Part shown: one piece after another, positions 49,901 to 63,929 of the stretch
Numbering within the stretch: the stretch's first letter is position 1
How the letters are laid out: the number at the start of each line of letters is the position of its first letter
DNA from: an uncultured Eubacteriales bacterium
Lineage (GTDB): Bacteria > Bacillota > Clostridia > TANB77 > CAG-508
Assembly: GCA_949289635.1 (NCBI GenBank)
Contig: CASEOS010000004.1
Location: 62,001 to 126,000 of the forward strand
Direction of reading: 5' to 3'
DNA length: 64,000 nt
The notes under the pieces: model-generated
Database searches by the model: none
Seen by the model: the letters and a program-made list of their open reading frames with translations, nothing else
Told to the model about the DNA's origin: nothing
Program-made: the position numbers and the translations under genes

Positions 49901-52207
49901 AATGAAAAATTTGGTACGATTGTTACAGAAAATATGGGAGGATATAGTTGGTATAAAAATAGTCGATTAAATCGATTGACTAGTTGGAATAATCATCCAA
50001 GTTTCGATATTCCATCAGAGGTTATCTATATAAAAGACATGGATACAAGGAAAAGTTGGTCTTTAGGATTAAATCCAATGCCAGATAATCGAAACTATAA
50101 TGTTATTTATGGTTTTGGTTATTGCAAATATATCCACAGCAATTTAGGAATTGAGCAAGAATTAGAAATGTTTGTTCCAAGAGAAGATAGTTGTAAAATT
50201 GGTATCTTACATTTAAGTAATAAAACACCAAATCGAAAGCATTTAAAGTTATATTATTATATCAAACCAGTTATTGGAGAAGATGAAATTAAAACATCTG
50301 GAAATATAAATATTCGATTTGATAGAAATAGTAATACTGTACTAGCATATAATTTATATGCTAGTGAAATAGATAAAACCAAACTATATATATCATCTAG
50401 TGAAAAAATAAAAAGCTATACAGGAGATAAAAAATTTTTCTTAGGAAAAAATGGATTATCCAACCCAGATGGTATCAAAAAACTCAAGTTGAATAATAGT
50501 AATGCACTAGGACGTGATACTTGCATGGTATTAGAAATTGAAGTAGAAATCGAAAGCTTTTCAAACAAAGAAATTTCTTTTGTTTTAGGAGCAGAAGAAA
50601 CCATGATTGATTGTAAAAATATAGCATATAAATATAGTAAATTACAGAATTGTAGGCAAGAATTAGAACGTGTAAAAAATGATTGGAGAGATTTATTAGG
50701 AAAACTTCAAATATATACCCCATTAGAATCAACGAATATTTTATTAAATGGTTGGTGTATTTATCAGACATTAGAAAGCAGGCTTTTAGGAAGAAGTGGC
50801 TATTATCAATCAGGAGGTGCTTTTGGATTTAGAGATCAATTGCAAGATACGATTGCTTTAAAATATATTTCACCAGAAATTTTAAAACAGCAAATTATCA
50901 AGCATAGTAAACATCAATTTGAGGAAGGAGATGTAGAACATTGGTGGCATGAAGAAACGGGGAGAGGAATTCGTACAAGATTTTCAGATGATTTGCTATG
51001 GTTACCATATCTGGTATTACAATATATTCACTTTACAGGAAATACTAGCATTTTAGATATAGAAACACCATACTTAAAAGGAGCAATCTTAGAAGAAGGT
51101 GTGGATGAAAGATATGACCAATATCCACAAAGTGAAAAACAAGAAAGTATTTACTGGCATTGTATTAGAGCAATTGAAAAAAGTTTTAACTTTGGAGAAA
51201 ATGGATTGCCGAAAATTGGTAGTGGTGATTGGAATGATGGATTTAGTACAGTAGGAAATAAAGGTAGAGGAGAAAGTGTTTGGTTAGGATTTTTCTTGTA
51301 CAACATTTTAGATGAATTTATTCCCATATGTGAAATGAAGGAATCAAAAGAAGAAAGCAATAAGCAAAAAGAAAGTAGAATTGAAAAATATAAAGAGATA
51401 AAGATACAGCTGAAAAAAGCATTAAATACAAATGGTTGGGATGGTAGATGGTATAAAAGAGCATTTATGGATGATGGAAATGTATTAGGAAGTATGGAAA
51501 ATGATGAATGTAGAATTGATAGTATTGCACAAAGTTGGAGTGTAATATCAAATGCAGGAGATAATGATAAAAAATATATTTCAATGGAAAGCTTAGAAAA
51601 TCATCTAGTAGATAAGGAAAATGGCATTATCAAATTATTAGATCCACCATTTGAAAAAGGACATTTAGAACCAGGATATATTAAAGCATATTTGCCAGGG
51701 GTGAGAGAAAATGGAGGACAGTATACACATGCCAGTTGTTGGGCAATTATTGCAGAAGCATTATTAGGATTTGGTGATAAAGCCTTAGAATTTTATCGAA
51801 TGATTAATCCAATCGAACATGCAAGAACGAAAGATGCTAGTAGTAAATATAAAGTAGAACCATATGCCATTGCAGCAGATATTTATGGGGCTGGTAATTT
51901 AGCTGGAAGAGGAGGTTGGACTTGGTATACTGGTTCAAGTAGTTGGTATTATATTGCGGGAATCGAATATATATTAGGTTTAAAAATAGAAAAAGGATAT
52001 TTAACAATAGAACCATGCATTCCAAAAGATTGGAAAGAATATTTCATGAGATATAAATGGAAAGATAGTATTTATAATATCAAAGTGATCAATCAAAATC
52101 AAAAAAATACAGGAGTGGAAAAAGTATTATTAAATGGGGAAGAGGTTGAGAATAAGATTAAATTAGAGGGAAATAATAGAGTGTATCATATTGAAGTTTA
52201 TATGTAA
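43997..52207 (+). CDS. Cyclic beta-1,2-glucan synthase-like membrane enzyme (GT84 / glycoamylase-like / GH94)
   Basis: A 2,736-residue protein with the order of cyclic beta-1,2-glucan synthases. Residues 1-390 are a cytosolic helical region; TM helices lie at about 393-440. The GT84-type transferase (470-770) shows DAD (612-614) and RLSRW (757-761) with WIRGDW. Further TM helices lie at about 803-976. A glycoamylase-like domain (1030-1400: FGVSESAFN, YGFYESIDF, KTYMAHHQG) would do transglycosylation or cyclisation. Residues about 1430-1700 are beta-rich, and a GH94-type phosphorylase domain (1950-2736) carries GSGDWNDG (D2411-D2414). The length matches Cgs/NdvB proteins (about 2,800). The start TTG at 43997 is 10 nt from AAGGAG. 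The product could be cyclic or linear beta-1,2-glucan. Confidence 0.88.
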   Translation: MKTNKILKIDGTILDKEQLEKHLQKNASNHNLRNKPSKETYPIPQLVENYETIKIVYQLLNEHVKLGITTHPAGEWLLDNFYIIEETVQQIQKELTLKKYMNFLGIANGKYKGFARIYVLAAEIVAYTDNKIQKEDLEDYLLSYQEKKTLSMEEIWNIGLFLQIAIIENITEICEKIYSSQIQKMKAENIVRRLIETTQGNKKNHIYHVKNIKKDMLQDVKYPFIEHMSYILKQYGKRGYRYLKVLDEIIEMTGTTVQEVIKKEHFDIAVKKVSIGNSITSIKTIQRINFLEIFEKINGVEEILKQDPADVYSKMDNMTKESYRNIIKEISRKTKISEMYIAKKILQLAKENKNKGKKSHIGYYILDKGMEKVYQELQCKVPRQMTEKNKQKLYIATNIVLSIVLSLVFSSILNLYIKNTEIYIFSFLILLIPSSEMVTQIIQYILSKIVKPKPIPKIDFSKGIDKENACMVVIPTILKNKEKVKELLRKLEVYYIANQSKNLYFTLLGDCSESSTKEEQFDNEVMETGIQLVEKLNKKYVTENEFPIFHFIYRKREWNEKENCYLGWERKRGMLTQFNEYLLGNEENPFRTTTIEEYKDCIPKIQYVITLDADTDLILNSASELVGAMAHILNKPVIDEEKNIVIEGYGIIQPRIGINLDISYKTIFTQIFAGTGGIDSYTNAISDLYQDNFGEGIFTGKGIYDVKVFSKVLKNAIPENTVLSHDLLEGCYLRCGLATDIMLMDGYPCKYNSFMNRLSRWIRGDWQIISWLKRKVNSKIGERQNPLNCLSKYKILDNLRRSLIEFMVIISFLLFVVLGKVYHFETYPFIVISLIAIVMPYILELFNTMLVKKEGEHKQKKFSPRISGYKGIGLRILITIGVLPYKAYISFIAIVKTLYRKWISHKKLLEWMTSEEAEKQAKNNVISYIRQMWFNIALGILSLGLAITNKNSGNFIIQTILGTLWIFAPFVMWYISKDKKEVKAIEKLNKTEIKYVLEIGRKTWQFFKQYITKENNYLMPDNYQEDRKQKVVARTSSTNIGLSILAIISSYDLQYETLPDMIHLLYKVLTSVDSLQKWNGHLYNWYDIKTKEPLKPRYISTVDSGNFVGYLYVTKAFLNEIIETKRKIDITNEEKNIKIRNQIQEMLEIIERMIKKTDFTYLYSQEHQIFSIGYNIEENKLTDSYYDLLASEARQASLVAIAKKDISLKHWNHLSRTLTILGKYKGLISWSGTAFEYLMPNINIPKYKGSLLDESCKFMIMSQMKYAKEMDLPFGVSESAFNLKDLQSNYQYKAFGIPWLGLKRGLADEIVVSAYASILAITDIPKEVIKNLKILEQYGMYNQYGFYESIDFTPERVRKGKQAEVVKTYMAHHQGLILLSINNLINQLILQKRFTENPEIQAVTILLQETMPEKAIITKEDKEKVEKLKYKDYEDYIVQTYTKIDGRLISGNVISNENYMVAMNQKGEGISKYKNIYVNYFKRTDDNTQGILFYIKSIKNKQIISSSYSQNIKKENQYQIRFMPDKNEQEIISGNIKATIKTTITSNEPVELRRVVLENSGNEEEIIELTGYFEPILGPKEQYYAHPAFNNLFLVYEYNEKNEAIIVKRKKRELAEKEVYLATTLHASYENKIGDLEYEIEEEKFIGRGNLGIPQMVKDSLPFSKKVGLITEPVVAMKRTIKIKSQEKVVVDFILSVGEEKEQVIQNLEKYISFENVKNEFALSKARVEAETRYLNIKGKDIKMYQKLLSYIIFDNSVKSVEKEKINHIQTYKQSDLWKYGISGDLPIILVKMKNANDVQGLKEVLKAYEYFRTKNVETEIVIMDEEKYSYENYLREEIDSTILNQHMGYLKNIKAGIFILNEEEMDKQDITFLEFISVITIDCAKGNLENNLKEIEENYLENYKEISEEENIDQFVEENTEDINILKDTEKLKYYNEYGAFSEDGKEYWICVDKEKRLPSVWSHIMANEKFGTIVTENMGGYSWYKNSRLNRLTSWNNHPSFDIPSEVIYIKDMDTRKSWSLGLNPMPDNRNYNVIYGFGYCKYIHSNLGIEQELEMFVPREDSCKIGILHLSNKTPNRKHLKLYYYIKPVIGEDEIKTSGNINIRFDRNSNTVLAYNLYASEIDKTKLYISSSEKIKSYTGDKKFFLGKNGLSNPDGIKKLKLNNSNALGRDTCMVLEIEVEIESFSNKEISFVLGAEETMIDCKNIAYKYSKLQNCRQELERVKNDWRDLLGKLQIYTPLESTNILLNGWCIYQTLESRLLGRSGYYQSGGAFGFRDQLQDTIALKYISPEILKQQIIKHSKHQFEEGDVEHWWHEETGRGIRTRFSDDLLWLPYLVLQYIHFTGNTSILDIETPYLKGAILEEGVDERYDQYPQSEKQESIYWHCIRAIEKSFNFGENGLPKIGSGDWNDGFSTVGNKGRGESVWLGFFLYNILDEFIPICEMKESKEESNKQKESRIEKYKEIKIQLKKALNTNGWDGRWYKRAFMDDGNVLGSMENDECRIDSIAQSWSVISNAGDNDKKYISMESLENHLVDKENGIIKLLDPPFEKGHLEPGYIKAYLPGVRENGGQYTHASCWAIIAEALLGFGDKALEFYRMINPIEHARTKDASSKYKVEPYAIAADIYGAGNLAGRGGWTWYTGSSSWYYIAGIEYILGLKIEKGYLTIEPCIPKDWKEYFMRYKWKDSIYNIKVINQNQKNTGVEKVLLNGEEVENKIKLEGNNRVYHIEVYM

Positions 52208-52232
52208 AAATAATCCAATAAACAAAATCATA

Positions 52233-52375: not shown

Positions 52376-52404
52376 TTGAAATATATGTAAAATAGTGGTA
52401 AAAT
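52376..52404 (+). promoter_or_regulatory. Promoter of the NKDWYI gene pair
   Basis: TTGAAA (52376-52381), a 17-nt spacer and TAAAAT (52399-52404). Confidence 0.65.
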
Positions 52405-52436
52405 ATTTATGTAAATTAAACAAAGGGGAATTTATA

Positions 52437-55379
52437 ATGAGTTTTGAAATAAATATATTTATCAATAAAATACAAAGAATACCAATTACAGAAGTTCAAG
52501 AAATGTTAAAAAAATATGAGAAAGAAATACAGGCTTTACCTTATGTGGATGGTAATGCAATTCTTAGTTTTATAGAAAAAAGATTTAATATTCTACAGCA
52601 AATTCCAAGGCAAGAAATCATGCTTCAAATGTTTTTATTTACAGATTTAAGTAGAAGAAGTAGAGAAGAAGTAAATAGAAGTCCAACACTAAAAGCAAAT
52701 AGTGAAAAAGAGCTAAAATCCTTAGACTTGATTACATTAATTGAATCATTACAATATATAGAAAGTGATAAAGTAAAATCCGTATTAAGAAAATATCATG
52801 ATATTTTACAACCAAGAATTATAGAAACATTAATTATTAATTTACCAGAAAATGAGCAGATTGAATTTATTAAAATATGTAAAAAAGAATTAATGGAAAG
52901 CCAGGCCAATACATTTCATAATTTTATGGCTTCTATTAGTCCAGAAGCTCAAAAATATGTATTGGAGAACTTTGAAGAAAAATTTGAAAGATATTCTCAA
53001 AATGATATGTCTGATGTGCCAACATCTTTATATCAAGAAAATATACCAATATTTACTAGTAGATATCAAAATTCAAAGAATTTAACAGAGATATTAATGG
53101 TTTGTGATGAAGAAAATTTAGAAAGTACATTACATAAATATAAAGAACAGCTTCACGAATTAAATGCAAATACTTTGATGCAAATACTTTGTTTAAAAAC
53201 AACGAATTCAGAAATGCTTTTTAGTATATGGGCAGATATGCAGGATAAATTAAGCGAAGTATCAATACCATTTTTTAAAACATTTATAAGAAGATTAGAA
53301 GATAAAGAAAGATTTGAAGCTATTTATCAATTAAAAGATAAATTTGCAGAAATGGATCTTAATGAAATTGTAGAATTATTTGAACATGATACAGATGAAA
53401 TTAAGGCAGATGTATTAATTGAATATCGTGATAGATTTACTGGTGAAAAATCTGAAACTTTAAAAAAATTTATGACAGAATCAGTAAAGAAAAAAATGAT
53501 AGATATATATGCCCAAAAACAATTGAAGGAATTTCAAGAAAAGAAAAATCAAGGTGTAGATTTATTAAAAGAATTTAGGATAATTGTTACAGAATTAAAA
53601 GATGATAAAAGACATAAATTATTTGATGATGATTATATAAAAGCAATTCTCTTAGGAAGAGTTTTATTAGAAGATTATACAATTGATGATAGAGATAAAA
53701 GTTATGTTGATTTAAGACAAAAATATATGAATCATTTATTTAAAAGTTTACGTAGAGATAATACTGTGGGAAATTGTGTAAATAATGGGCTTTTCTATAG
53801 AATTGTAAAAGGAAATGTAGAATTCAGTCAGATAGAAAATTTAGAAACTGTAAAGGCACTTATCTATTTAACTAGAAATCCAAAGATGAAAGATGTAAAA
53901 AAGATAGAAAACATTATTAGAGGTTTAACAGAAAAACAAGTGCAAACATATAATTTAAAATTATATAAAAGTTTATGTGAGAAAATAAGAGAAACATATA
54001 AAGAATCATCTCCATTAGAAGAAAATATACAAAAACTAGGATATAAACTGTTTTTGGCTTTTGGATATCATAAAGCCTTAAAAATAGTAGAGCATAAAAT
54101 AGATTTTACAACATTAGAATATTTATTCAATGGATTAAGTTTAAGGCATATTGAATTACAGGAAGATGGTATACCAAAAATAAACAAAAAGATACAAAAT
54201 TTTTTATTTGGAAGTAATCAAAATGATCCAAATTGTAATATAAATAGATTATTACATGAAACAGATTCAGAGTTTGGCAAGTATTTTTCTTCCATTTATA
54301 ATGATTGGGAAGAAATTTATAAAAAATTAAATGGTAATGTAAAGGTAAATAGAATTTTAAATTTATATAAAAAGGCAAATACTTTTTTAAAACCAGATGA
54401 ATATAAATTAGAAGGACCAATACACGAAATAGGACTAGGAAAACCACAAATTGTACAAAAAGCAAGAGAGTGGTATCAGATAATGAGAGAAAGACAATAT
54501 TCAAGTATACCAAAAGTTCAAGGAAATTTGGATGATGAATATACATATGAAATGTTAGATTTAGACGATCCTCTTGCTCTAGCAGTAGGATATATCACAA
54601 AATGCTGTTTCTTAATAGATGGATTATCAAAAGAGTCATTATATCACTCTATTAGTAATAAAAATGGTAGAACATTTATTGTCAGAAAAAATGGAGAACT
54701 CATTGCGCAAAGTTGGGTATGGAGAAATGGAAATGTTTTATGTTTTGATAATGTTGAAGCTAGAGGAAATTATAGTTATGATAAATTATTGGAAACTTAT
54801 CAAAAAGCAAGTCAGGAATTGTTAGAAATTTCTGATCAAACAGAAAATGAGACGGAAAGTCTAAAAGTGATTACCTATGGAACGTCTGAATCAAGAATGG
54901 CAAAACCATCTAAAAGATTTACAGAAAAAACATTACCAAAAGTTTTAGAGCCAGTAGGATATTCTGATGCAAAATATGAACAATATATTCTTGCTGAAAG
55001 AGAACAGGAAGAATTATATTATGGAGAAGTTACTGCAAGATACCAAGATCCAAGACCAGAAATAGCAGAATATAGAGACATAAAATCATTAACAGATAAA
55101 AAAATTAGAAAAATAAATCAAGAATTAGATGGGATAGAATATACAGCAACAGGAAAAACACGAAAAAACAATATAAGAAAATGTACATATGTTGCCTATA
55201 ATAAGGATTGGTATATAGCAATAACAAATGGTGGAAAAGTAGAAATACAGATATTAAAAAAAGATCCTAGAGCCATAGAGGAATGTAAAAATAAAGCAAA
55301 AATAATCCTAAAAGAAATAAGAAAAGATAAGATAGTAGTACCAACAGATATTGAAGGAGTTGGAGGTGATGATAGATAA
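52437..55379 (+). CDS. Large alpha-solenoid protein with acetyltransferase-like and NKDWYI regions, unknown function
   Basis: A 980-residue cytosolic protein that I do not recognise. Residues about 1-420 look like repeated helical pairs of 40-45 residues, each ending in a Lys/Glu-rich turn (an alpha-solenoid). Residues about 430-700 are helical without clear repeats. Residues about 705-835 contain DPLALAVGYITKCCFLIDG, then FIVRKNGELIAQSWVWRNGN and CFDNVEARG, a pattern resembling GNAT-type domains. The C-terminus holds an NKDWYI module (922-927) followed by an EI strand and a helix; the next protein has the same module. AAAGGGG supports the start at 52437. The stop overlaps the next start (TAATG). 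Confidence 0.6.
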   Translation: MSFEINIFINKIQRIPITEVQEMLKKYEKEIQALPYVDGNAILSFIEKRFNILQQIPRQEIMLQMFLFTDLSRRSREEVNRSPTLKANSEKELKSLDLITLIESLQYIESDKVKSVLRKYHDILQPRIIETLIINLPENEQIEFIKICKKELMESQANTFHNFMASISPEAQKYVLENFEEKFERYSQNDMSDVPTSLYQENIPIFTSRYQNSKNLTEILMVCDEENLESTLHKYKEQLHELNANTLMQILCLKTTNSEMLFSIWADMQDKLSEVSIPFFKTFIRRLEDKERFEAIYQLKDKFAEMDLNEIVELFEHDTDEIKADVLIEYRDRFTGEKSETLKKFMTESVKKKMIDIYAQKQLKEFQEKKNQGVDLLKEFRIIVTELKDDKRHKLFDDDYIKAILLGRVLLEDYTIDDRDKSYVDLRQKYMNHLFKSLRRDNTVGNCVNNGLFYRIVKGNVEFSQIENLETVKALIYLTRNPKMKDVKKIENIIRGLTEKQVQTYNLKLYKSLCEKIRETYKESSPLEENIQKLGYKLFLAFGYHKALKIVEHKIDFTTLEYLFNGLSLRHIELQEDGIPKINKKIQNFLFGSNQNDPNCNINRLLHETDSEFGKYFSSIYNDWEEIYKKLNGNVKVNRILNLYKKANTFLKPDEYKLEGPIHEIGLGKPQIVQKAREWYQIMRERQYSSIPKVQGNLDDEYTYEMLDLDDPLALAVGYITKCCFLIDGLSKESLYHSISNKNGRTFIVRKNGELIAQSWVWRNGNVLCFDNVEARGNYSYDKLLETYQKASQELLEISDQTENETESLKVITYGTSESRMAKPSKRFTEKTLPKVLEPVGYSDAKYEQYILAEREQEELYYGEVTARYQDPRPEIAEYRDIKSLTDKKIRKINQELDGIEYTATGKTRKNNIRKCTYVAYNKDWYIAITNGGKVEIQILKKDPRAIEECKNKAKIILKEIRKDKIVVPTDIEGVGGDDR

Positions 55380-56785
55380 TGCAAGAACTAAAAATAAAAG
55401 ATATAAAAAGACGATTTAAAAATTATGAAGGTAGAGTAGGGTATGAATATCCAAAAAATATGTTTTTATTTTTTGAAATTTTATCTTCTACATTATCAGA
55501 TACAGCAACTCTAAATGAATTAATATTTACGATACAATTACTAGTAAATGATTTAGAAAATAGAAAATGTGGTTTCCATAATAGTAGTGTTACGAGGAAA
55601 AAATTTGAAGAACTAATTTCTAGATTAAAAGCTTTCAATGATTTACCAATGGTATTGTCATCTGTACCTAGATATATAGACGAAATTGCAGATGCGACTT
55701 TTTCACGAGAATTTTCAAAAATATATGGACGAGTCATATTAGAAAATTTAGGAGTAGAACCACAAAAAGAAGATTATGGATATATAGAAATCAAAAAAGA
55801 TATCATAGATATTTCTAATAAAGATAAAGCAGAGGTTTTAGCAAAATTATATAATAATAGCCATCCAATGGGAATGGGAATGGCACAATACGATCCTACA
55901 CCTATGACTGTAGAATTTGCAAGAAAATTGCTAGAAAAAGAAACGTATTTTAGTTATTTAAAAGGGAGACCATTATATATCGATTTAAAGGATAATATCA
56001 TATATGTAAGTTCTTATAATAGAGATAATGGACCCCAATTAGCTCAACAAGTTATATCTGGCTGTAAAAATATGAATGATATGGGAAAAGAAAACTTGAA
56101 AAAGTTTGAAACGCAAATTGAAGAAGAAATTCAAAGACAAATAGAACAAGAAATAGCGAAAAAACATAAAGAAAAATTACAGGCGAAGGTCCAACAAAAA
56201 AATATGGTATCTACTGCAAACACAAGAAATCATGGCTTAGATTATCTAAGAGTATCTCCATCAGAATTACAGCCAATGAGAAGACTAATAGAAGAATCTG
56301 GACAAGATATCAGTGAAGATACATTACAATTTATAAAAAGTGTTGAAAATGAAGCATATCCAGAAGAAATGAAAATATTACAAGATATTGAAGATGTGTA
56401 TGAATTAGAAGATGCTTATGAGTATGATTTATCTGAACTTACGATTGCCAGAAATAAAGATTGGTATATTATTTATGGAGAAGATGAGGACTCTATTGAA
56501 ATAGTAGATATTGCATCACTTCCAACTAGAGCTAGAGAAGCAAGTCAAGAAATACATAATTATATAACTAAAGTAATCAATCAAAAAGCACATAGTGGTA
56601 ATAAACCAGTGACACTTAATGCAAAAGAAGATACATCCTATCGAATGATTCAAAGAATGGTTAATAATGGGGAATATGAAATTGTAGAAGATACACCAAA
56701 TACTTGGGAGGATGATGAAGAAATTAAGATGCATTATTTAGTATTGATGCCGATTATACAAAGGGACAGACATGAAACAAAATAA
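55379..56785 (+). CDS. NKDWYI-module partner protein, unknown function
   Basis: A 468-residue cytosolic protein coupled to the previous gene by a 1-nt TAATG overlap. Residues 1-130 are helical; about 170-230 contains NNSHPMGMGMAQYDPTP and LKGRPLYIDLKDNIIYVSSYNRDNG; about 235-285 is a Gln/Glu/Lys coiled coil. An NKDWYI motif (359-364) is followed by an EIVDI strand and a long helix, mirroring the C-terminus of the partner. No enzyme motif was recognised. The shared module suggests the two proteins bind a common target or each other. Confidence 0.6.
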   Translation: MQELKIKDIKRRFKNYEGRVGYEYPKNMFLFFEILSSTLSDTATLNELIFTIQLLVNDLENRKCGFHNSSVTRKKFEELISRLKAFNDLPMVLSSVPRYIDEIADATFSREFSKIYGRVILENLGVEPQKEDYGYIEIKKDIIDISNKDKAEVLAKLYNNSHPMGMGMAQYDPTPMTVEFARKLLEKETYFSYLKGRPLYIDLKDNIIYVSSYNRDNGPQLAQQVISGCKNMNDMGKENLKKFETQIEEEIQRQIEQEIAKKHKEKLQAKVQQKNMVSTANTRNHGLDYLRVSPSELQPMRRLIEESGQDISEDTLQFIKSVENEAYPEEMKILQDIEDVYELEDAYEYDLSELTIARNKDWYIIYGEDEDSIEIVDIASLPTRAREASQEIHNYITKVINQKAHSGNKPVTLNAKEDTSYRMIQRMVNNGEYEIVEDTPNTWEDDEEIKMHYLVLMPIIQRDRHETK

Positions 56786-57095
56786 TATATTAGAAAAATC
56801 AGAAATTGATATATAGAATAAGTTTAAAAGTAGTAACAAGTAGTATGTGTGTGCAAATCTATCATATTTATCAATCCTTTCTAAATAATTATCAAAGAAA
56901 TTATATTGTACATAAAGAAAAAAGGAAATATAAATAGTAACAAAAAAATAATCCTTTCATATGTACATATAAAAAATTGTAATAGAAGATAGATATAATT
57001 TGTGTTTTTTAAGGTAAAATTATAAGTATTAGCGAGTGTAAATGCTAATGCTTATTTTTATAGAAAAAAATTTCCAATAAGTGGGTGTAAACTGA
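56786..57095. other. AT-rich gap with an orphan terminator
   Basis: There is no convincing gene. A TATAAT (56994-56999) without a good -35 lies just upstream of a 12-bp terminator stem (57022-57033 with 57044-57055, then TTTTAT), 237 nt after the last gene. This could end a very long 3' UTR or a short unrecognised RNA. Confidence 0.4.
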
Positions 57096-57124
57096 TTGAC
57101 AAAAGAACAAAAGTTTGATAATAT
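57096..57124 (+). promoter_or_regulatory. Promoter of the RhuM-family gene
   Basis: TTGACA (57096-57101), a 17-nt spacer and TAATAT (57119-57124). Confidence 0.8.
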
Positions 57125-57183
57125 ATAACAAAAAATGAGATAATTTTAACTATTAAAAATTTCAATAAAAGGAGGAATTTTAT

Positions 57184-58221
57184 TTGAATAATAATACAAT
57201 TGATGATAATTTAATTGGAAATGAAAATAATATTGTATTTTATACGGATGAAGAAAATAATGTTAATGTTGAAGTTATTTTACACAATGAAAATGTTTGG
57301 CTAAATATTGATTCTTTAACAAAATTATTTAAAATTGATAGAACAGGTATAACAAGGCATATAAATAATATTTATAAAGATGAGGAATTAGAAGAAAACT
57401 CAACTTGTGCAAAAATTGCACAAGTTCAAAAAGAAGGTGGGAGAAGCGTTACAAGAAATATTTCTTATTATAATTTAGATATGATAATATCAATAGGATT
57501 TAGAGTAAATTCGAAACCAGCTATTAAATTTAGAACATGGGCAAATAAGATTATCAAAGAATATATGATTAAAGGATTTACATTAAATGACGACAGATTT
57601 ATCAATGGTAATAAATTTGATACTAGATATTTTGATGAATTATTGGAACGCATAAAAACTATTAGAGTAAGTGAAAGAATGTCTTACCAAAAGATTATGG
57701 ATTTATTTATAGCAACAGCAGTTGATTATAATAAAGATTCAGAAGAAGCATATACTTTTTTCAAAATTGTACAAAACAAGTTACATTATGCTATAACAGG
57801 AAAAACTGCTGCCGAATTAATTTTTGAAAGAGTAGATTCAAAGAAAGATCATATGGGACTCACTTCATGGAAGAACTCACCAGATGGACTAATTTATAAA
57901 TATGATGTAGGCATTGCTAAGAATTATTTACAAAAAGAAGAAATAGAAAAATTAAATGATTTAACTAATTTATTTTTAGATGTAGCAGAAACAGAAGCAA
58001 AAGAGCAGAAAACTATGACAATGAATGAGTGGATAGAAGTTGCGGATGATTTATTAAAGTATAGAAAGAAAAATATTTTAAAAAATGCAGGGAAAATATC
58101 ACATAAACAGGCAATTGAAAAAGCAAATGAAGAATATGAAAAATTTAGAATAAAACAAGATAAAGAATATATTTCTAGTATGGATCAAATGCTTAATAAA
58201 TATTTAAAAGAAAATAAATAA
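57184..58221 (+). CDS. rhuM: RhuM-family protein
   Basis: A 345-residue protein of the virulence RhuM family. The N-terminal DNA-binding-like region has VWLNIDSLTKLFKIDRTGITRHI and the family hallmark YYNLDMIISIGFRVNSKPAIKFRTWA (read as two adjacent blocks), then LNDDRF and the C-terminal GLTSWKNSPDG and AKNYL. RhuM genes are common in genomic islands and near restriction-modification loci; their role is unclear. Here it is alone, with its own promoter. The start is TTG at 57184, 7 nt after AAAGGAGG. Confidence 0.9.
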   Translation: MNNNTIDDNLIGNENNIVFYTDEENNVNVEVILHNENVWLNIDSLTKLFKIDRTGITRHINNIYKDEELEENSTCAKIAQVQKEGGRSVTRNISYYNLDMIISIGFRVNSKPAIKFRTWANKIIKEYMIKGFTLNDDRFINGNKFDTRYFDELLERIKTIRVSERMSYQKIMDLFIATAVDYNKDSEEAYTFFKIVQNKLHYAITGKTAAELIFERVDSKKDHMGLTSWKNSPDGLIYKYDVGIAKNYLQKEEIEKLNDLTNLFLDVAETEAKEQKTMTMNEWIEVADDLLKYRKKNILKNAGKISHKQAIEKANEEYEKFRIKQDKEYISSMDQMLNKYLKENK

Positions 58222-58311
58222 TGCAATTGTTTATTGTAATTAATTAGAGATTGGATAAATGTGAATCAATTTTTTATGTGTTTTACACCAATGTAGAAGA
58301 ATTATTGATGA

Positions 58312-58337
58312 CGATTTTGCTGAGGTCAGCAAAATCG
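58312..58337. repeat. Perfect 12-bp inverted repeat of unknown role
   Basis: CGATTTTGCTGA (58312-58323) and TCAGCAAAATCG (58326-58337) are separated by only GG. There is no T-run. It lies 19 bp before the glucan-synthase gene remnant and may mark a recombination junction. Confidence 0.7.
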
Positions 58338-58356
58338 GTGAAGCAAGAGTAACACA

Positions 58357-58446
58357 GAAAAAGTATTATTAAATGGAGAAAAAGTGGAAAATAAGATTAA
58401 ATTAGATGGAAATAATAAAGTGTATAATATTGAAGTAGTTATGTAG
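58357..58446 (+). pseudogene. Diverged copy of the last 90 bp of the glucan synthase-like gene
   Basis: Thirty codons, stop included, aligning with 52118-52207 at 78 of 90 bases; 24 of 29 residues match (VEKVLLNGE and the NKIKL/GNN block). It has no start and nothing homologous upstream. The similarity ends about 10 bases after the stop codon. It is a remnant of a second gene copy, or the displaced 3' end left by an insertion. Confidence 0.88.
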
Positions 58447-58455
58447 AAAATAATG

Positions 58456-58500
58456 AAAAAAGAAAACAGCGTTTTTAAAATTCTGTTTTCTTTTTTTGGG
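58456..58500. terminator. Bidirectional terminator after the gene remnant
   Basis: A 14-bp perfect stem (58456-58469 with 58483-58496), A-rich on the left and T-rich on the right. Confidence 0.85.
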
Positions 58501-58503
58501 ATT

Positions 58504-60051
58504 TTAGTTAGGTAATTCAATATGTGTTACATTTCTATGAAGATTTTTTAATTTTGTATTGATTCTTAGAGCAATTTCTGAAGTATACTTAGGATGTTTT
58601 TCAATCTGGTCAATATAGAATTGTAATTTTTCAAAATATAAATGAGATTGTTGATTGCTAGATACATATAATTCATAATACAAATAAATTAATTCTTCCA
58701 AAGCTTCTATTAACGCAGGAGATATATCTTGTAGTAATTCAATTGCTTTATCTGTATTTTTTTCAACACCAATTTCTAAACAGCCATGTTTATAAAAATA
58801 TTTTGCTAAGTTATATTTAGCCCATGGACATAAAGTGAATTTTGGAGATTCGGTAGCAATTGCATAATAGTCAAAAGCTTTTTTTAAATCTTTTGTATGT
58901 AATTTTCCAGTTCTATAAAATTCACCGACTTTATTACAAGCCCAACTTTCACCAGCATTGGCAGATAATAAGTAATAGTCAAAGGCTGTTTTATCATTTT
59001 GTTCATTTTCATAAATCATTCCTAAATTATTATAAGCATAGATATTTCCCATTGAAGCAGCTTTTTTAAACATTTCAACAGCTTTTTTCTTGTTCTTTTC
59101 TATATGAGGAATGTCTCCATGTAACATCATTAGTCCAATACTATTCAAGGCATTAGAACATTTTAATTTTCTAGCTCTATTAAAATATTGAAAGGCTAAA
59201 AATAAATCTCTTTTGGATTTTGTTCCAATATGACCTTTGTAATATAAATATCCAATTGCCCAGTTAGCAACAGGATGATTATATTTAGCAGCAATTTTAT
59301 AATATTCATAAGCTTTTTCATATCTAGCTTTTCCTGTGATAATGCCATAACATTCCATAGAAGCAATTTCAAAACAAGCAAAAGGGTTATTTTTTTTCGT
59401 TAATTCTTTAATTCCTCTAATAGACCAAATGCCTGAGTTTAGTTGTATTTTAATAAAATCTTGTATATCACTAACAGAAATATTGGTGTCATAAATATTT
59501 TTTTCAATGACATCATTTAAAGATTCCTCTAAATAGATAGGTTGTTTTTTTTCTAATATAACATAAAATAGTACCTGAGCAATAAAATCATATAAATGAT
59601 TTTCATATAAGTACTTATATAAGGTATTAGATAATAACATACTAACATCAGAATCATTTTTACTAATAGAATACAATTTTGTACATATATGTTTTAATCT
59701 AGTATTTTTGTTGATATCTTGGATAGTTATATTAGGATTATTAAATTCTTCATCTCCCAATAAAGCTAATATTTTAGAAATAATAGGAACCAATATTTCA
59801 TGATTAGTCTCAAAATCGTTTTTTATTCTCATAAAATCATTTTTGTAAATGGGATGAATAGCTCTTAATCCTGTACAATAATTGTTTACTGTACTATCTG
59901 CGATATTATCTGTATTAAAAATAATAGAAAATAAATCAGATTGCCAAAAGGTATGTATATGATTGGACTGTTCTTTCACAATTCTGAAAAAATTTCCAAA
60001 AGATAAATATTGATTATTTACATTTAATCTGATAAATCCTTTTTTAGCCAT
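58504..60051 (-). CDS. Sel1-like repeat protein
   Basis: A 515-residue cytosolic protein. Residues 1-210 form an N-terminal domain that I do not recognise (starts MAKKGFIRLNVNNQYLSF). Residues about 222-410 hold four or five Sel1-like repeats of about 36 residues, with the alternating pattern YYKIAA, IGYLYYKG, YFNRAR, MFKKAASMGN, NLGMIYE. SLR proteins are adaptors in signalling and stress pathways. No catalytic motif is visible. GGGGG precedes the ATG. It has its own promoter facing away from the operon at 60.2 kb. Confidence 0.85.
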   Translation of the reverse strand: MAKKGFIRLNVNNQYLSFGNFFRIVKEQSNHIHTFWQSDLFSIIFNTDNIADSTVNNYCTGLRAIHPIYKNDFMRIKNDFETNHEILVPIISKILALLGDEEFNNPNITIQDINKNTRLKHICTKLYSISKNDSDVSMLLSNTLYKYLYENHLYDFIAQVLFYVILEKKQPIYLEESLNDVIEKNIYDTNISVSDIQDFIKIQLNSGIWSIRGIKELTKKNNPFACFEIASMECYGIITGKARYEKAYEYYKIAAKYNHPVANWAIGYLYYKGHIGTKSKRDLFLAFQYFNRARKLKCSNALNSIGLMMLHGDIPHIEKNKKKAVEMFKKAASMGNIYAYNNLGMIYENEQNDKTAFDYYLLSANAGESWACNKVGEFYRTGKLHTKDLKKAFDYYAIATESPKFTLCPWAKYNLAKYFYKHGCLEIGVEKNTDKAIELLQDISPALIEALEELIYLYYELYVSSNQQSHLYFEKLQFYIDQIEKHPKYTSEIALRINTKLKNLHRNVTHIELPN

Positions 60052-60074
60052 ATGAATCTAACCCCCATGATTTT

Positions 60075-60103
60075 ATTATAAAACAGAATGTTCATTTCGT
60101 CAA
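60075..60103 (-). promoter_or_regulatory. Promoter of the Sel1-repeat gene
   Basis: On the - strand: TTGACG (60103-60098), a 17-nt spacer and TATAAT (60080-60075). Confidence 0.8.
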
Positions 60104-60158
60104 TAAAAAAACGTGAAAATGTCGTGAAAAGCAAAAGAATAAAGTGAAAATAAGTGAG

Positions 60159-60186
60159 TTGATAAAAAGTAAATAATGCATATAAT
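60159..60186 (+). promoter_or_regulatory. Promoter of the hydrolase-Mur ligase-ddl operon
   Basis: TTGATA (60159-60164), a 16-nt spacer and TATAAT (60181-60186). Confidence 0.7.
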
Positions 60187-60224
60187 ATAAAAAGGTAATT
60201 TTATGAGGAAAGTGGTGAGGTAAA

Positions 60225-61004
60225 ATACAAACAATTATCAATAAATTGAACATTCATTATATCGAAAAAGGAAAGGGAAAACCAGTTTTAATTCTCCCTG
60301 GTTGGGGAACAACAATAGAGGTTTATATGGCTATGATAAATTCTATTGCAGAATACAGAAAAGTATATTGTTTAGATATGCCGGGATTTGGAAAATCTGA
60401 AGAACCAAAAATAGCATGGGATTTAAATGACTATATAGAGTTTATTATAAAATTTATAGAAAGCCAGCAAATAAAAGAATTAGATATTATAGGACATTCT
60501 AATGGTGGAAGAATCAGCATCAAACTGTTAAATCAGAAAAATTTGCATTTTAAAGTTAATAAATTAATATTAATCGGAAGTGCAGGAATTGTTCATAAAA
60601 TAAGTTTTACGAAAAGAATGCGTGTAAAACTTTTTAAAATAGGAAAAAAAATTGTACAGACAAAAATAATAAAGAAAAAATATCCAGATTTATTAGATAA
60701 ATTAAAAAGTAGGTTTGGGTCAGAAGATTACCGAAATGCATCCCCTGTTATGCAACAATCCCTAGTAAAATTAATTCATGAAGATTTAAAAGAGGAACTC
60801 CCTAACATTCAAGTACCAACTTTGTTATTATGGGGAACAGCAGATATGGAAACACCAATTGAAGATGCAGAACTTATGGAAAAGGTAATTCCAGATGCAG
60901 GATTGGTAAAATTTGAAAATGCTTCTCATTATGTATTTTTAGAAAAAATGGGGCAAATTCATAGAATCATTAAGACATTTTTACAGGGAGGAGAGAATAA
61001 ATGA
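60225..61004 (+). CDS. Alpha/beta hydrolase, probably starting at AUA
   Basis: A protein of about 259 residues with the alpha/beta hydrolase fold: oxyanion loop PVLILPGWG, CLDMPGFGKSE, nucleophile Ser in IIGHSNGG, an Asp strand (LLLWGTADMETP) and the catalytic His in NASHYVF. The first conventional start is TTG at 60246, but the frame upstream reads QTIINKLNIHYIEKG, the usual beginning of this family, back to an ATA at 60225 preceded by GAGG; a stop lies at 60216. So ATA is the likely start. The substrate is unknown. The stop overlaps the Mur ligase start by 4 nt. Confidence 0.8.
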   Translation: MQTIINKLNIHYIEKGKGKPVLILPGWGTTIEVYMAMINSIAEYRKVYCLDMPGFGKSEEPKIAWDLNDYIEFIIKFIESQQIKELDIIGHSNGGRISIKLLNQKNLHFKVNKLILIGSAGIVHKISFTKRMRVKLFKIGKKIVQTKIIKKKYPDLLDKLKSRFGSEDYRNASPVMQQSLVKLIHEDLKEELPNIQVPTLLLWGTADMETPIEDAELMEKVIPDAGLVKFENASHYVFLEKMGQIHRIIKTFLQGGENK

Positions 61005-62554
61005 AAAGTATCATCATAATAGAATATAGTATGAATTTAATTTCCTTATTAGTTTTCTATATGCATATGTTTCAATTAAATTCTTATTTTCTCAGAAAAC
61101 ACATGCATTGGATGAAGAAGAATATAAAAAAAATAATGATACAATTAGGTTTTATCTTTATTTCACTAATACTATTATGTGTAAATCATTTAATCAGTAT
61201 GATAAGTGTAATCATTGTTTTGGCATTATCTATCATTTACAATATGCCAAAACAAAAAGCCAAAGTACCTTTTCAGTTAACCAATAGAGTAAAAAGAATG
61301 TTTTTAACAGAAGGAATATTGATTGGTATAGTTATATGGTTAGGAGGCATAGATACCTATTTGTATATAAAATTAGGTATTTTGAACATATTTTCTAGCG
61401 TTCTATGTATAATAGTAAACGCTATCAATATGCCAATAGAATATTTTGGAAAGCAAAGATATATAAAACAAGCCCAAAAAATATTAGATGAAATGCCTGA
61501 TTTACTTGTGATAGGAGTGACAGGGAGTTATGGGAAAACAAGTGTGAAAAATTTTCTATATAAAATTTTATCTACGAAATATGAGGTATTAAAAACACCT
61601 AAAAATTTTAATACAACTATGGGTGTAGTAAAAACAATCAGAGAAAAATTAAAACCAACACACCAAATTTTTATATGTGAAATGGGTGCTACAAAACCAG
61701 GAGATATCAAGGAAATATGTAATATTGTAAAACCCAAAATGGGAATCATTACTTCCATAGGTCCACAACATTTAGAAAGTTTTAAAACTATTAAAAATGT
61801 TATTAAAGCAAAATTCGAATTAGCTGATAGTGTAAAAGAAAATCATGGCGTTATGTTTTTGAATGGGAATGATACCAACATAGTGAATGCTATTCAAGAT
61901 AAAACAGACATAAATAGCATAATATATGGAGTGGAAAAAAAGGAGTTTAACTATAATGCTTATGATTTAAAATCTTCTTTAAAAGGTTTAACTTTTAAAA
62001 TACAAGATGAAAATAGAGAAGAGATAGAGTTAAAAACAAAATTGATAGGAAAACATAATGTGATGAATATTACTGCTGCAATGGCAATAGGAAATTATTT
62101 AGGAATACCTATAAAAAACATGAAAGCAAGCATCAGAGAAATTCAAAGTGTAGAACATAGATTGCAATTAATTCCTCATGGGAATTTGACCATTATTGAT
62201 GATTCTTATAATGCCAATCCTATAAGCTCTAAGCTAGCATTAGAAACTTTGGCAGAATTTGATGGAATCAAAATCGTTGTAACGCCAGGATTAATTGAAC
62301 TAGGAGAAAAAGAAAAAAAATATAATTTTGAATTTGGCCAATATATAACAGAAGTATGTGATTACATCTTTTTAGTAGGAGAAGATCATTCTAAAGAAGT
62401 TTTGGAAGGCATTCATTCTAGAAAATTTAATAAGAAAAAAATTTTTGTGGTCCGTACGCCAGAAGAAGCAGTAAAAAAAGCTAATAAATATGCTGTCAAA
62501 GACAGAGTGATAGTGTTATTAGAGAATGATTTACCAGATAATTATAATGTGTAA
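61001..62554 (+). CDS. Mur ligase (MurF-like) with N-terminal membrane domain
   Basis: A 517-residue protein. The first 150 residues hold about four or five membrane helices, absent from ordinary MurF. The rest is a MurF-type ligase: P-loop GVTGSYGKTS (172-181), FNTTMG, CEMGA, KHNVMN (H351) and the family DDSYNANP (400-407) with EHR (385-387). MurF joins D-Ala-D-Ala to UDP-MurNAc-tripeptide. This copy is followed by ddl, so it probably takes a D-Ala dipeptide or variant to a membrane-linked acceptor; that is inference. It is coupled to the hydrolase by ATGA. Confidence 0.88.
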   Translation: MKSIIIIEYSMNLISLLVFYMHMFQLNSYFLRKHMHWMKKNIKKIMIQLGFIFISLILLCVNHLISMISVIIVLALSIIYNMPKQKAKVPFQLTNRVKRMFLTEGILIGIVIWLGGIDTYLYIKLGILNIFSSVLCIIVNAINMPIEYFGKQRYIKQAQKILDEMPDLLVIGVTGSYGKTSVKNFLYKILSTKYEVLKTPKNFNTTMGVVKTIREKLKPTHQIFICEMGATKPGDIKEICNIVKPKMGIITSIGPQHLESFKTIKNVIKAKFELADSVKENHGVMFLNGNDTNIVNAIQDKTDINSIIYGVEKKEFNYNAYDLKSSLKGLTFKIQDENREEIELKTKLIGKHNVMNITAAMAIGNYLGIPIKNMKASIREIQSVEHRLQLIPHGNLTIIDDSYNANPISSKLALETLAEFDGIKIVVTPGLIELGEKEKKYNFEFGQYITEVCDYIFLVGEDHSKEVLEGIHSRKFNKKKIFVVRTPEEAVKKANKYAVKDRVIVLLENDLPDNYNV

Positions 62555-62634
62555 GGAAAAAAGTTTTTATATATTAAGGTAAAAGCTAAATTTTTATTAC
62601 ACTAAATAGAAATATAAGAAAGGAATGATAAAAT

Positions 62635-63843
62635 ATGAAAATTAAAGTAGGTGTGTTTTTTGGTGGAAAATCTGTAGAACATGAGGTATCTATTATCACA
62701 GCACTTCAAGCAATAGAAAATATGAACAAGGAAAAATATGATGTTATACCAATCTATATTGCTAAAGATAATAAAATGTATTGTGGAAATAGTATAGGAG
62801 ACATTAAAAAATATACAAACCTTAAAGAATTGTTAAAAAATAGTACGCAGGTAACATTGGTGCAAAAGGGAGAAAAAGTGGCAATCATAAGAAGTGAAAA
62901 GAAATTTTATGAAAAAGAAGTATATGACTATATTGATATTGCTTTTCCAATTGTGCATGGAACTAATGTAGAAGATGGAACAATTCAAGGATATTTAAAA
63001 ATGTTTAATATACCATTTGTAGGATGTGATGTTATTTCTTCTGCAATCGGAATGGATAAATATGTTTGTAAATGTATTTTAAAGGAAAATGGTTTACCAG
63101 TATTAGACTGTAAATGTTTTTCTAAGAAAGCATATAATGATGACAGCAAAAAAGTGATAGAAGAAATCGAAAATGCTATACCATACCCAGTAATTGTAAA
63201 ACCAATTAATTTAGGTTCTAGTGTAGGAATCAGTATTGCAAATGACCAAGAGGAATTGCAAGAAGCAATAGAAGAAGCTTTTACATATGCCAAAAAGATA
63301 CTAGTAGAAAAAGCAATTAAAAATTTAAAAGAAGTCAATTGTTCTGTATTAGGAGATTATGAAGAAACAATGTCATCAGAATGTGAAGAACCAATCAAAA
63401 CAGATGAAATATTAAGTTATCAAGATAAATATATTTCTGGTGGTAAAAAAATGGGAGGAAAATTAGAAGGAAGTAAAACCTCAATGAATGCAGGGGTTTT
63501 AAAATTACCAGCAGATATTAGTAAAGACACAAAGGAAAAAATACAAATTTTAGCGAAAAAAGTGTTTCATGTTTTAGGATGTACAGGTGTTATTCGAATT
63601 GATTTTATGATTGATCAAGATACAAATAAAATCTATGTAAATGAAGTAAATACTATTCCTGGTTGTTTATCATTCCATTTATGGAGAGAAACCAATATAA
63701 GTTATACAGATTTAATTGATAAATTAATAGAATTAAGTTTAAAGAGAAACCGTGAAGAAGGAGAGATTACTTATTCTTTTGAAACAAATATTTTGGAAGG
63801 ATATCAGCTAAATGGGAGTAAAGGGGCAAAAAATATAAAATAA
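62635..63843 (+). CDS. ddl: D-alanine-D-alanine ligase family protein
   Basis: A 402-residue ATP-grasp enzyme that makes D-Ala-D-Ala or D-Ala-D-X. It contains FFGGKSVEHEVSI at the N-terminus, PYPVIVKPINLGSSVGIS (ATP-grasp), a GYLKMFNIPFVG segment and NEVNTIPG near the metal site. It is about 40 residues longer than Escherichia coli Ddl, with a C-terminal extension. AAAGGA precedes the ATG. In the operon with the MurF-like ligase it probably supplies the dipeptide. Whether it prefers D-Ala or another D-residue cannot be told. Confidence 0.93.
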   Translation: MKIKVGVFFGGKSVEHEVSIITALQAIENMNKEKYDVIPIYIAKDNKMYCGNSIGDIKKYTNLKELLKNSTQVTLVQKGEKVAIIRSEKKFYEKEVYDYIDIAFPIVHGTNVEDGTIQGYLKMFNIPFVGCDVISSAIGMDKYVCKCILKENGLPVLDCKCFSKKAYNDDSKKVIEEIENAIPYPVIVKPINLGSSVGISIANDQEELQEAIEEAFTYAKKILVEKAIKNLKEVNCSVLGDYEETMSSECEEPIKTDEILSYQDKYISGGKKMGGKLEGSKTSMNAGVLKLPADISKDTKEKIQILAKKVFHVLGCTGVIRIDFMIDQDTNKIYVNEVNTIPGCLSFHLWRETNISYTDLIDKLIELSLKRNREEGEITYSFETNILEGYQLNGSKGAKNIK

Positions 63844-63929
63844 TGGAGGAGATTTATCAGAAGAATAAAATTGTCACAAAAAAATAATTCTCTCATATAT
63901 ATAGTAATAAAAGCGATAAAGGGAGGATT

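What the first reader, a model, noticed from the sequence alone, without database searches (positions are those of the whole stretch)
52376..56785. Coupled pair of large unknown proteins sharing an NKDWYI module
A 980-residue solenoid protein with an acetyltransferase-like region and a 468-residue partner overlap by one base and share a C-terminal NKDWYI-strand-helix module. Neither matches a family I know. A shared small domain on two co-translated proteins suggests a multi-component machine, possibly defence-related given the neighbours.
Basis: partly seen in the sequence, partly recalled or inferred. Interest (0 to 1): 0.66.

Follow-up and report, generated by a model that had tools for sequence, protein, structure and literature searches.

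The report
Split giant solenoid–acetyltransferase-fold protein pair
Two overlapping genes in an uncultured gut Clostridia bacterium encode a split, horizontally moving version of an unnamed family of giant proteins, built from a long helical scaffold and two acetyltransferase-shaped domains that lack the usual coenzyme-A motif; what they do is unknown.

Summary
In detail: P0001 (52437-55379, 980 aa) and P0002 (55379-56785, 468 aa) overlap by one base, and neither gives a significant Pfam or NCBIfam match. The GNAT guess is right. A confident model of P0001 630-883 matches almost only GNAT acetyltransferases. The NKDWYI motif of P0002 lies on a strand of a second GNAT fold (~310-458). About 80 relatives carry that second domain on the same chain as the first; the window's clade carries it on the second gene. 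P0001's own NKDWYI tail is probably a truncated remnant (suggestive only). Neither GNAT fold has the acetyl-CoA P-loop motif, yet the first keeps an invariant T-C-C/H/QSWxWRN/CxDNxE set. Relatives in the other deep clade are paired instead with a ProA-like aldehyde-dehydrogenase-fold protein that lacks the catalytic-Cys segment. P0002 also holds a domain found as a stand-alone phage protein. The pair is patchy (2 of 34 sampled same-genus relatives), under purifying selection, and moved recently between species (dS 0.13-0.16 against 0.34-0.87 for three control genes). It is not housekeeping. Defence is possible but unsupported: no match to a named PADLOC system, and relatives' neighbours are ordinary genes. 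Substrate and function remain unknown.

The parts
52376..52404 (+). Candidate sigma-70 promoter with extended -10 (TTGAAA-17-TGxTAAAAT type)
   Evidence: Consensus scan, not above the shuffle expectation overall; lies just upstream of the ATG
52437..55379 (+). P0001, 980 aa: helical solenoid + GNAT1 + short NKDWYI tail
52437..54296 (+). Solenoid region of P0001 (~1-620), weak internal repeats, fastest-evolving part together with the tail
   Evidence: Self profile comparison with ~28-residue offsets; a relative has 8 DUF4116 repeats here; dN/dS 0.24-0.27; not modelled
54324..55085 (+). GNAT1 domain (P0001 630-883); invariant TKCC 54597-54608, His in YHS 54642-54650, QSWVWRN 54708-54728, CFDNVE 54741-54758
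   Evidence: 63-sequence alignment, AF2 pLDDT 88 pTM 0.85, Foldseek to GNATs, motif positions
55200..55376 (+). P0001 C-terminal NKDWYI strand-strand-helix, probable truncated GNAT2 remnant
55379..56785 (+). P0002, 468 aa, start codon overlaps the stop of P0001 (TAATG)
55379..55783 (+). P0002 N-terminal helical domain (1-135), no relative found outside the pair
55793..56068 (+). P0002 'LYNNS' domain (139-230), relative of a stand-alone ~90-aa phage protein
   Evidence: 39-48% identity to phage copies
56306..56752 (+). P0002 GNAT2 domain (310-458) with NKDWYI at 56453-56470
   Evidence: Profile match to ~80 mostly single-chain relatives, AF2, Foldseek to Ard1/RimI-type GNATs, TM normalised by target ~0.5-0.6
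57022..57055 (+). Candidate intrinsic terminator after the pair

Best explanation
P0001-P0002 is a two-gene, overlapping (probably translationally coupled), horizontally mobile accessory operon. It encodes the split form of an unnamed protein family made of a helical solenoid followed by two GNAT folds. SHOWN: the domain order; both GNAT folds (as predicted structures); that the second GNAT sits on the same chain in most relatives but on P0002 here; absence of the acetyl-CoA P-loop motif with an invariant polar/Cys set kept in GNAT1; purifying selection; recent transfer between species; a clade-specific partner. INFERRED: P0002 docks its GNAT2 beside GNAT1 of P0001 and rebuilds in trans the tandem-GNAT head of the relatives. 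The solenoid recognises a target. GNAT1 (TxCC, His, Q-S-W-x-W-R-N, C-x-D-N-x-E) acts on it, either as a transferase whose donor is not bound through a CoA P-loop or as a binding-only pseudoenzyme. The phage-type LYNNS domain takes the place that the ProA-like pseudo-ALDH holds in the other clade, as a regulatory or ligand-binding subunit. The physiological role is most likely a conflict-type or otherwise strain-specific accessory function, not core metabolism.
For: Pair adjacent in Clostridia and Bacilli contigs. GNAT1 model pLDDT 88, pTM 0.85; PDB hits nearly all GNAT, PaiA E 4e-4. GNAT2: 84 profile hits, E to 1e-48, mostly at the C-terminus of single-chain relatives; model and Foldseek hits GNAT only. 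No [QR]xxGx[GA] after beta-4 in 63/63 GNAT1 rows; 3/84 GNAT2 rows hold the pattern anywhere. Invariant residues. Partner: ProA-like C0 found near the family gene in 60 loci, ProA match E 1e-19 with the 249-332 segment of 1o20 reduced to ~30 residues. Tree: the window's clade (100/100) holds all rows with a P0002-type partner, the other clade all rows with C0. dN/dS 0.09-0.16 GNAT1, 0.11-0.12 GNAT2, 0.24-0.27 solenoid. dS 0.13-0.16 for the pair against 0.34-0.45 (G027) and 0.66-0.87 (G020) for SMC, a P-type ATPase and ndvB.
Against: No biochemical data; assembly of P0001 with P0002 was not modelled (no complex prediction available). Four pair-bearing Bacilli loci (L058-L061) have a short P0002 without GNAT2, so GNAT2 in trans is not essential to the pair. 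Clustering of the invariant residues in 3D was not checked (coordinates not given out). Homology of the P0001 tail with GNAT2 is only suggestive. No evidence fixes the physiological role.
Confidence: 0.5

Rival explanations
1. Anti-phage defence system: the solenoid (or the phage-like LYNNS domain acting as a decoy or sensor) detects a phage protein and the GNAT head modifies tRNA or protein to stop growth.
For: Patchy and mobile; solenoid evolves faster than GNAT1; P0002 carries a domain otherwise found in phages, in one record beside an ssb gene and near recT; RhuM neighbour matches the defence-candidate family PDC-S05.
Against: No significant PADLOC match of the family or its partners; neighbours of relatives are mostly single-occurrence housekeeping genes, with no defence-island pattern.
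Confidence: 0.22
2. Ordinary acetyl-CoA-dependent N-acetyltransferase complex (protein or tRNA acetylation) with a large targeting scaffold.
For: GNAT fold in both domains; strong purifying selection on GNAT1.
Against: P-loop motif absent in 63/63 GNAT1 rows and in 81/84 GNAT2 rows; the invariant T-C-C/QSWxWRN/CxDNxE set is not the usual GNAT signature (own knowledge of the superfamily).
Confidence: 0.12
3. Non-enzymatic scaffold: tandem pseudo-GNAT plus solenoid as a structural component.
For: No CoA motif; the partner in the other clade looks like a pseudoenzyme too.
Against: Invariant polar and Cys residues kept across 63 diverged sequences are more than a scaffold usually needs; no spore or wall genes recur beside it.
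Confidence: 0.2
4. A relic or cargo of a mobile element with a PcfJ-like transfer function.
For: Foldseek also lists several PcfJ-like phage proteins; a MobV-like gene lies beside it in a few loci; transfer between species.
Against: No PF14284 match in the own genome, no profile-profile relation to two PcfJ sequences; no integrase or relaxase next to the pair in the window; no relatives of P0001 found on plasmids or in viral contigs.
Confidence: 0.08

Closest known systems
GNAT superfamily (PaiA, RimI, Ard1-type N-acetyltransferases)
   Same: Predicted fold of GNAT1 and GNAT2; two GNAT folds in tandem also occur in a known solved protein, 2wpw (listed)
   Different: No acetyl-CoA P-loop motif in either domain; GNAT1 has its own invariant T-C-C/H/QSWxWRN/CxDNxE set; large solenoid; GNAT2 on a second protein here
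PcfJ-like proteins (PF14284)
   Same: Related fold by Foldseek; similar order of a G-x-x-[L/T]-x-[H/C]-C motif followed by strands with Q and N (by inspection only)
   Different: No Pfam match, profile comparison negative
Microcystis phage MaMV-DC ORF68 (697 aa) and BFVD A0A7G9A3X2 (656 aa)
   Same: Carry the GNAT1 core (TKCCQ, QSWTW, CFDN) or its fold
   Different: Different N-terminal region; phage-encoded; partner not known
Gamma-glutamyl phosphate reductase ProA (for the partner of the sister clade)
   Same: ALDH-fold sequence match, E 1e-19
   Different: The segment equivalent to 1o20 249-332, with the catalytic Cys, is reduced to ~30 residues; and the window's clade has no such partner beside it

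Membership tests
GNAT superfamily | GNAT fold | tested here: met
   Two AF2 models, Foldseek top hits GNAT
GNAT superfamily | Acetyl-CoA binding motif [Q/R]xxGx[G/A] after beta-4 | tested here: not met
   0/63 GNAT1, pattern anywhere in 3/84 GNAT2
GNAT superfamily | Acyl transfer activity | not testable with these tools
   Needs biochemistry
PcfJ-like (PF14284) | Match to the Pfam model | tested here: not met
   No match in the own genome; none in the Pfam scan
PcfJ-like (PF14284) | Profile-profile relationship | tested here: inconclusive
   Negative, but with only two PcfJ sequences
Known anti-phage defence systems (PADLOC) | Model match of the proteins | tested here: not met
   Only one marginal match, E 0.048 on P0002
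Known anti-phage defence systems (PADLOC) | Clustering with defence genes in relatives | tested here: not met
   141 neighbours: mostly housekeeping, families seen once
DUF4116/HEAT-like solenoid | Tandem helical repeats in P0001 1-620 | tested here: inconclusive
   Weak internal repeats; DUF4116 matched only in a relative; the N-terminus was not modelled
ProA/ALDH (partner C0 of the sister clade) | Catalytic Cys segment | tested here: not met
   About 80 residues of 1o20 are replaced by ~30

The most novel reading that the evidence does not exclude
A new class of two-component accessory systems in gut Bacillota: a solenoid-guided tandem GNAT-fold head that works without the CoA P-loop, held by clade-specific partners (a ProA-derived pseudo-ALDH, or a phage-type domain fused to the second GNAT). 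It would be a new kind of transferase or conflict machine.
Probability: 0.3. Interest if true: 0.8.

Novelty: new variant of a known kind. Interest (0 to 1): 0.52.

Why it matters
A family of giant proteins (~400 to 1,870 aa), some in tandem copies, in poorly studied gut Bacillota has no significant full-length model match in Pfam, NCBIfam or PADLOC. It re-uses two enzyme folds (GNAT twice, ProA/ALDH) without their standard cofactor or catalytic features, while keeping a new invariant residue set. The split in this window shows which piece works in trans, so pull-down and mutation tests become direct.

Tried and rejected
Housekeeping pair: rejected (patchy; dS 2-6 times lower than control genes). 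NKDWYI as pure chance: not excluded by sequence alone, but unlikely given collinearity and the fold. PcfJ membership: rejected for lack of a model or profile match. Phage or plasmid origin of P0001: no relatives in viral contigs or plasmids; three Microcystis phage records share only the core. PDB sequence search with the GNAT1 and LYNNS profiles: no hit. Rfam on the window: nothing. Clean empty site for the pair: not found; the region after ndvB differs in most relatives looked at. Literature: no paper on the family found. A wider phylum scan found a match only in the own genome (1 of 398), although named Bacilli MAGs hold the family.

Full report
OBSERVATION. P0001 (52437-55379, 980 aa, ATG after AAAGGGGAA) and P0002 (55379-56785, 468 aa) overlap by one base in TAATG, with GGAGG upstream of the second start. 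A promoter-like site with extended -10 ends at 52404 and a terminator-like hairpin lies at 57022-57055. Pfam and NCBIfam give nothing significant for either protein; PHROGs gives only a weak match of P0002 302-387 to a phage family of unknown function. NKDWYI is exact in both proteins.

WHAT THE DOMAINS ARE. The ~110-residue core of P0001 recurs in large proteins of many gut Bacillota MAGs. In a 63-sequence alignment R, P, G, C-C, Q-S, R, C, D and E are invariant and H, W, W, N nearly so. The AlphaFold model of P0001 630-883 (pLDDT 88, pTM 0.85) has a GNAT-like order of strands, and nearly all listed PDB matches are GNAT acetyltransferases; viral matches include GNATs and some PcfJ-like proteins. 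The P0002 domain with NKDWYI (310-458) gives GNAT matches with target-normalised TM about 0.5-0.6. A profile of this second domain finds 84 stretches, most at the C-terminus of single-chain relatives, E down to 1e-48. So the family carries GNAT1 and GNAT2 on one chain in most members; the window's clade carries GNAT2 on the second gene. The P0001 tail (NKDWYI, strand-strand-helix) is collinear with GNAT2 of the relatives but only weakly similar (profile E 0.02, 3 of 300 shuffles as good): a probable remnant.

CATALYTIC EXPECTATION. The [Q/R]xxGx[G/A] motif that wraps acetyl-CoA is absent after beta-4 in all 63 GNAT1 rows, and the pattern occurs in only 3 of 84 GNAT2 rows. GNAT1 nevertheless keeps T-C-C, H, QSWxWRN and CxDNxE. 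This points either to a non-CoA donor or to a binding-only domain; the data do not decide.

PARTNERS. In 60 loci a protein of usually ~340 aa lies near the large gene, mostly adjacent. It matches gamma-glutamyl phosphate reductase (Pfam Aldedh 2e-9; PDB 1o20 E 1e-19) but the segment equivalent to 1o20 249-332, which holds the catalytic Cys, is cut to ~30 residues. On the GNAT1 tree the window's clade (support 100/100) holds all five rows with a P0002-type partner and the sister clade holds all 45 rows with the ProA-like partner. P0002 itself is a helical N-domain, a ~90-residue domain found alone in phages and GNAT2; in four Bacilli loci the partner lacks GNAT2. Divergent ProA-like genes also sit near other, unrelated large proteins, including one in this genome.

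DISTRIBUTION AND MOVEMENT. Full-length P0001 is in 2 of 34 sampled same-genus relatives, the core in 19 of 287 genomes of the order, and, in a phylum sample of 398 genomes, only in the own genome; named MAGs with the family are Clostridia, Bacilli and other Bacillota, nearly all from animal guts. dN/dS is 0.09-0.16 for GNAT1, 0.11-0.12 for GNAT2 and 0.24-0.27 for the solenoid. Between the window and G027 or G020, dS of the pair is 0.13-0.16, while SMC, a P-type ATPase and ndvB give 0.34-0.45 and 0.66-0.87. The pair has therefore moved between these species, most simply by recombination of chromosomal segments (inference): no integrase or relaxase is next to it in the window.

DEFENCE? But neither the pair nor its relatives gives a significant PADLOC match, and 141 neighbours of relatives are mostly housekeeping families seen once. 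Defence remains a possibility, not a result.

VERDICT. Real, unnamed, mobile, under selection; the folds are assigned by prediction, the activity is unknown. The strongest new point is the trans-split of a tandem GNAT-fold head with clade-specific, partly pseudo-enzymatic partners. Steps from anatomy to function are inference.

Noticed in passing
window 52118-52227 and 58357-58466: The 3' end of the ndvB-like giant gene is repeated (83-86% over 110 bp, still in frame to a stop) after the RhuM gene, flanking P0001, P0002 and RhuM.
   Followed up: partly
window 56840-63872: About 7 kb (RhuM, ndvB end copy, Sel1-like, hydrolase, MurF-like, Ddl-like genes) lies between P0002 and a 226-aa gene that directly follows P0002 in G027 and G020.
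   Followed up: partly
L201 1677-15258: In G019 the ndvB gene is split at about residue 446 of the query by an 11.7-kb insert with serine-recombinase-like and MobV-like genes; ndvB matches break at the same place in several other relatives.
   Followed up: no
L150 5590-10142 (G000 contig C3): The window's own genome has a divergent ProA-like pseudo-ALDH gene near another uncharacterised 969-aa protein, syntenic in G027; similar arrangements in L153, L155-L157, L159.
   Followed up: partly
L096 1174-8288: Two neighbouring paralogs are both broken after the GNAT1 core, at about the same place (851+254 aa, 1013+259 aa): real split or frameshift.
   Followed up: no
L141 5001-5276: A viral-contig copy of the LYNNS protein has two in-frame stops (codon identity not checked), perhaps a recoded phage.
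   Followed up: no
window 57184-58221: RhuM-family gene (PF13310 E 1e-100) matching PADLOC candidate family PDC-S05.
   Followed up: no
L062 and L063: Family members inserted between nusG and a ribosomal protein L11 gene (gene names by inspection).
   Followed up: no
L080, L088, L106, L116, L118, L119, L121, L125 and others: A small protein family (~100-167 aa) recurs near the large gene in 12 loci.
   Followed up: no
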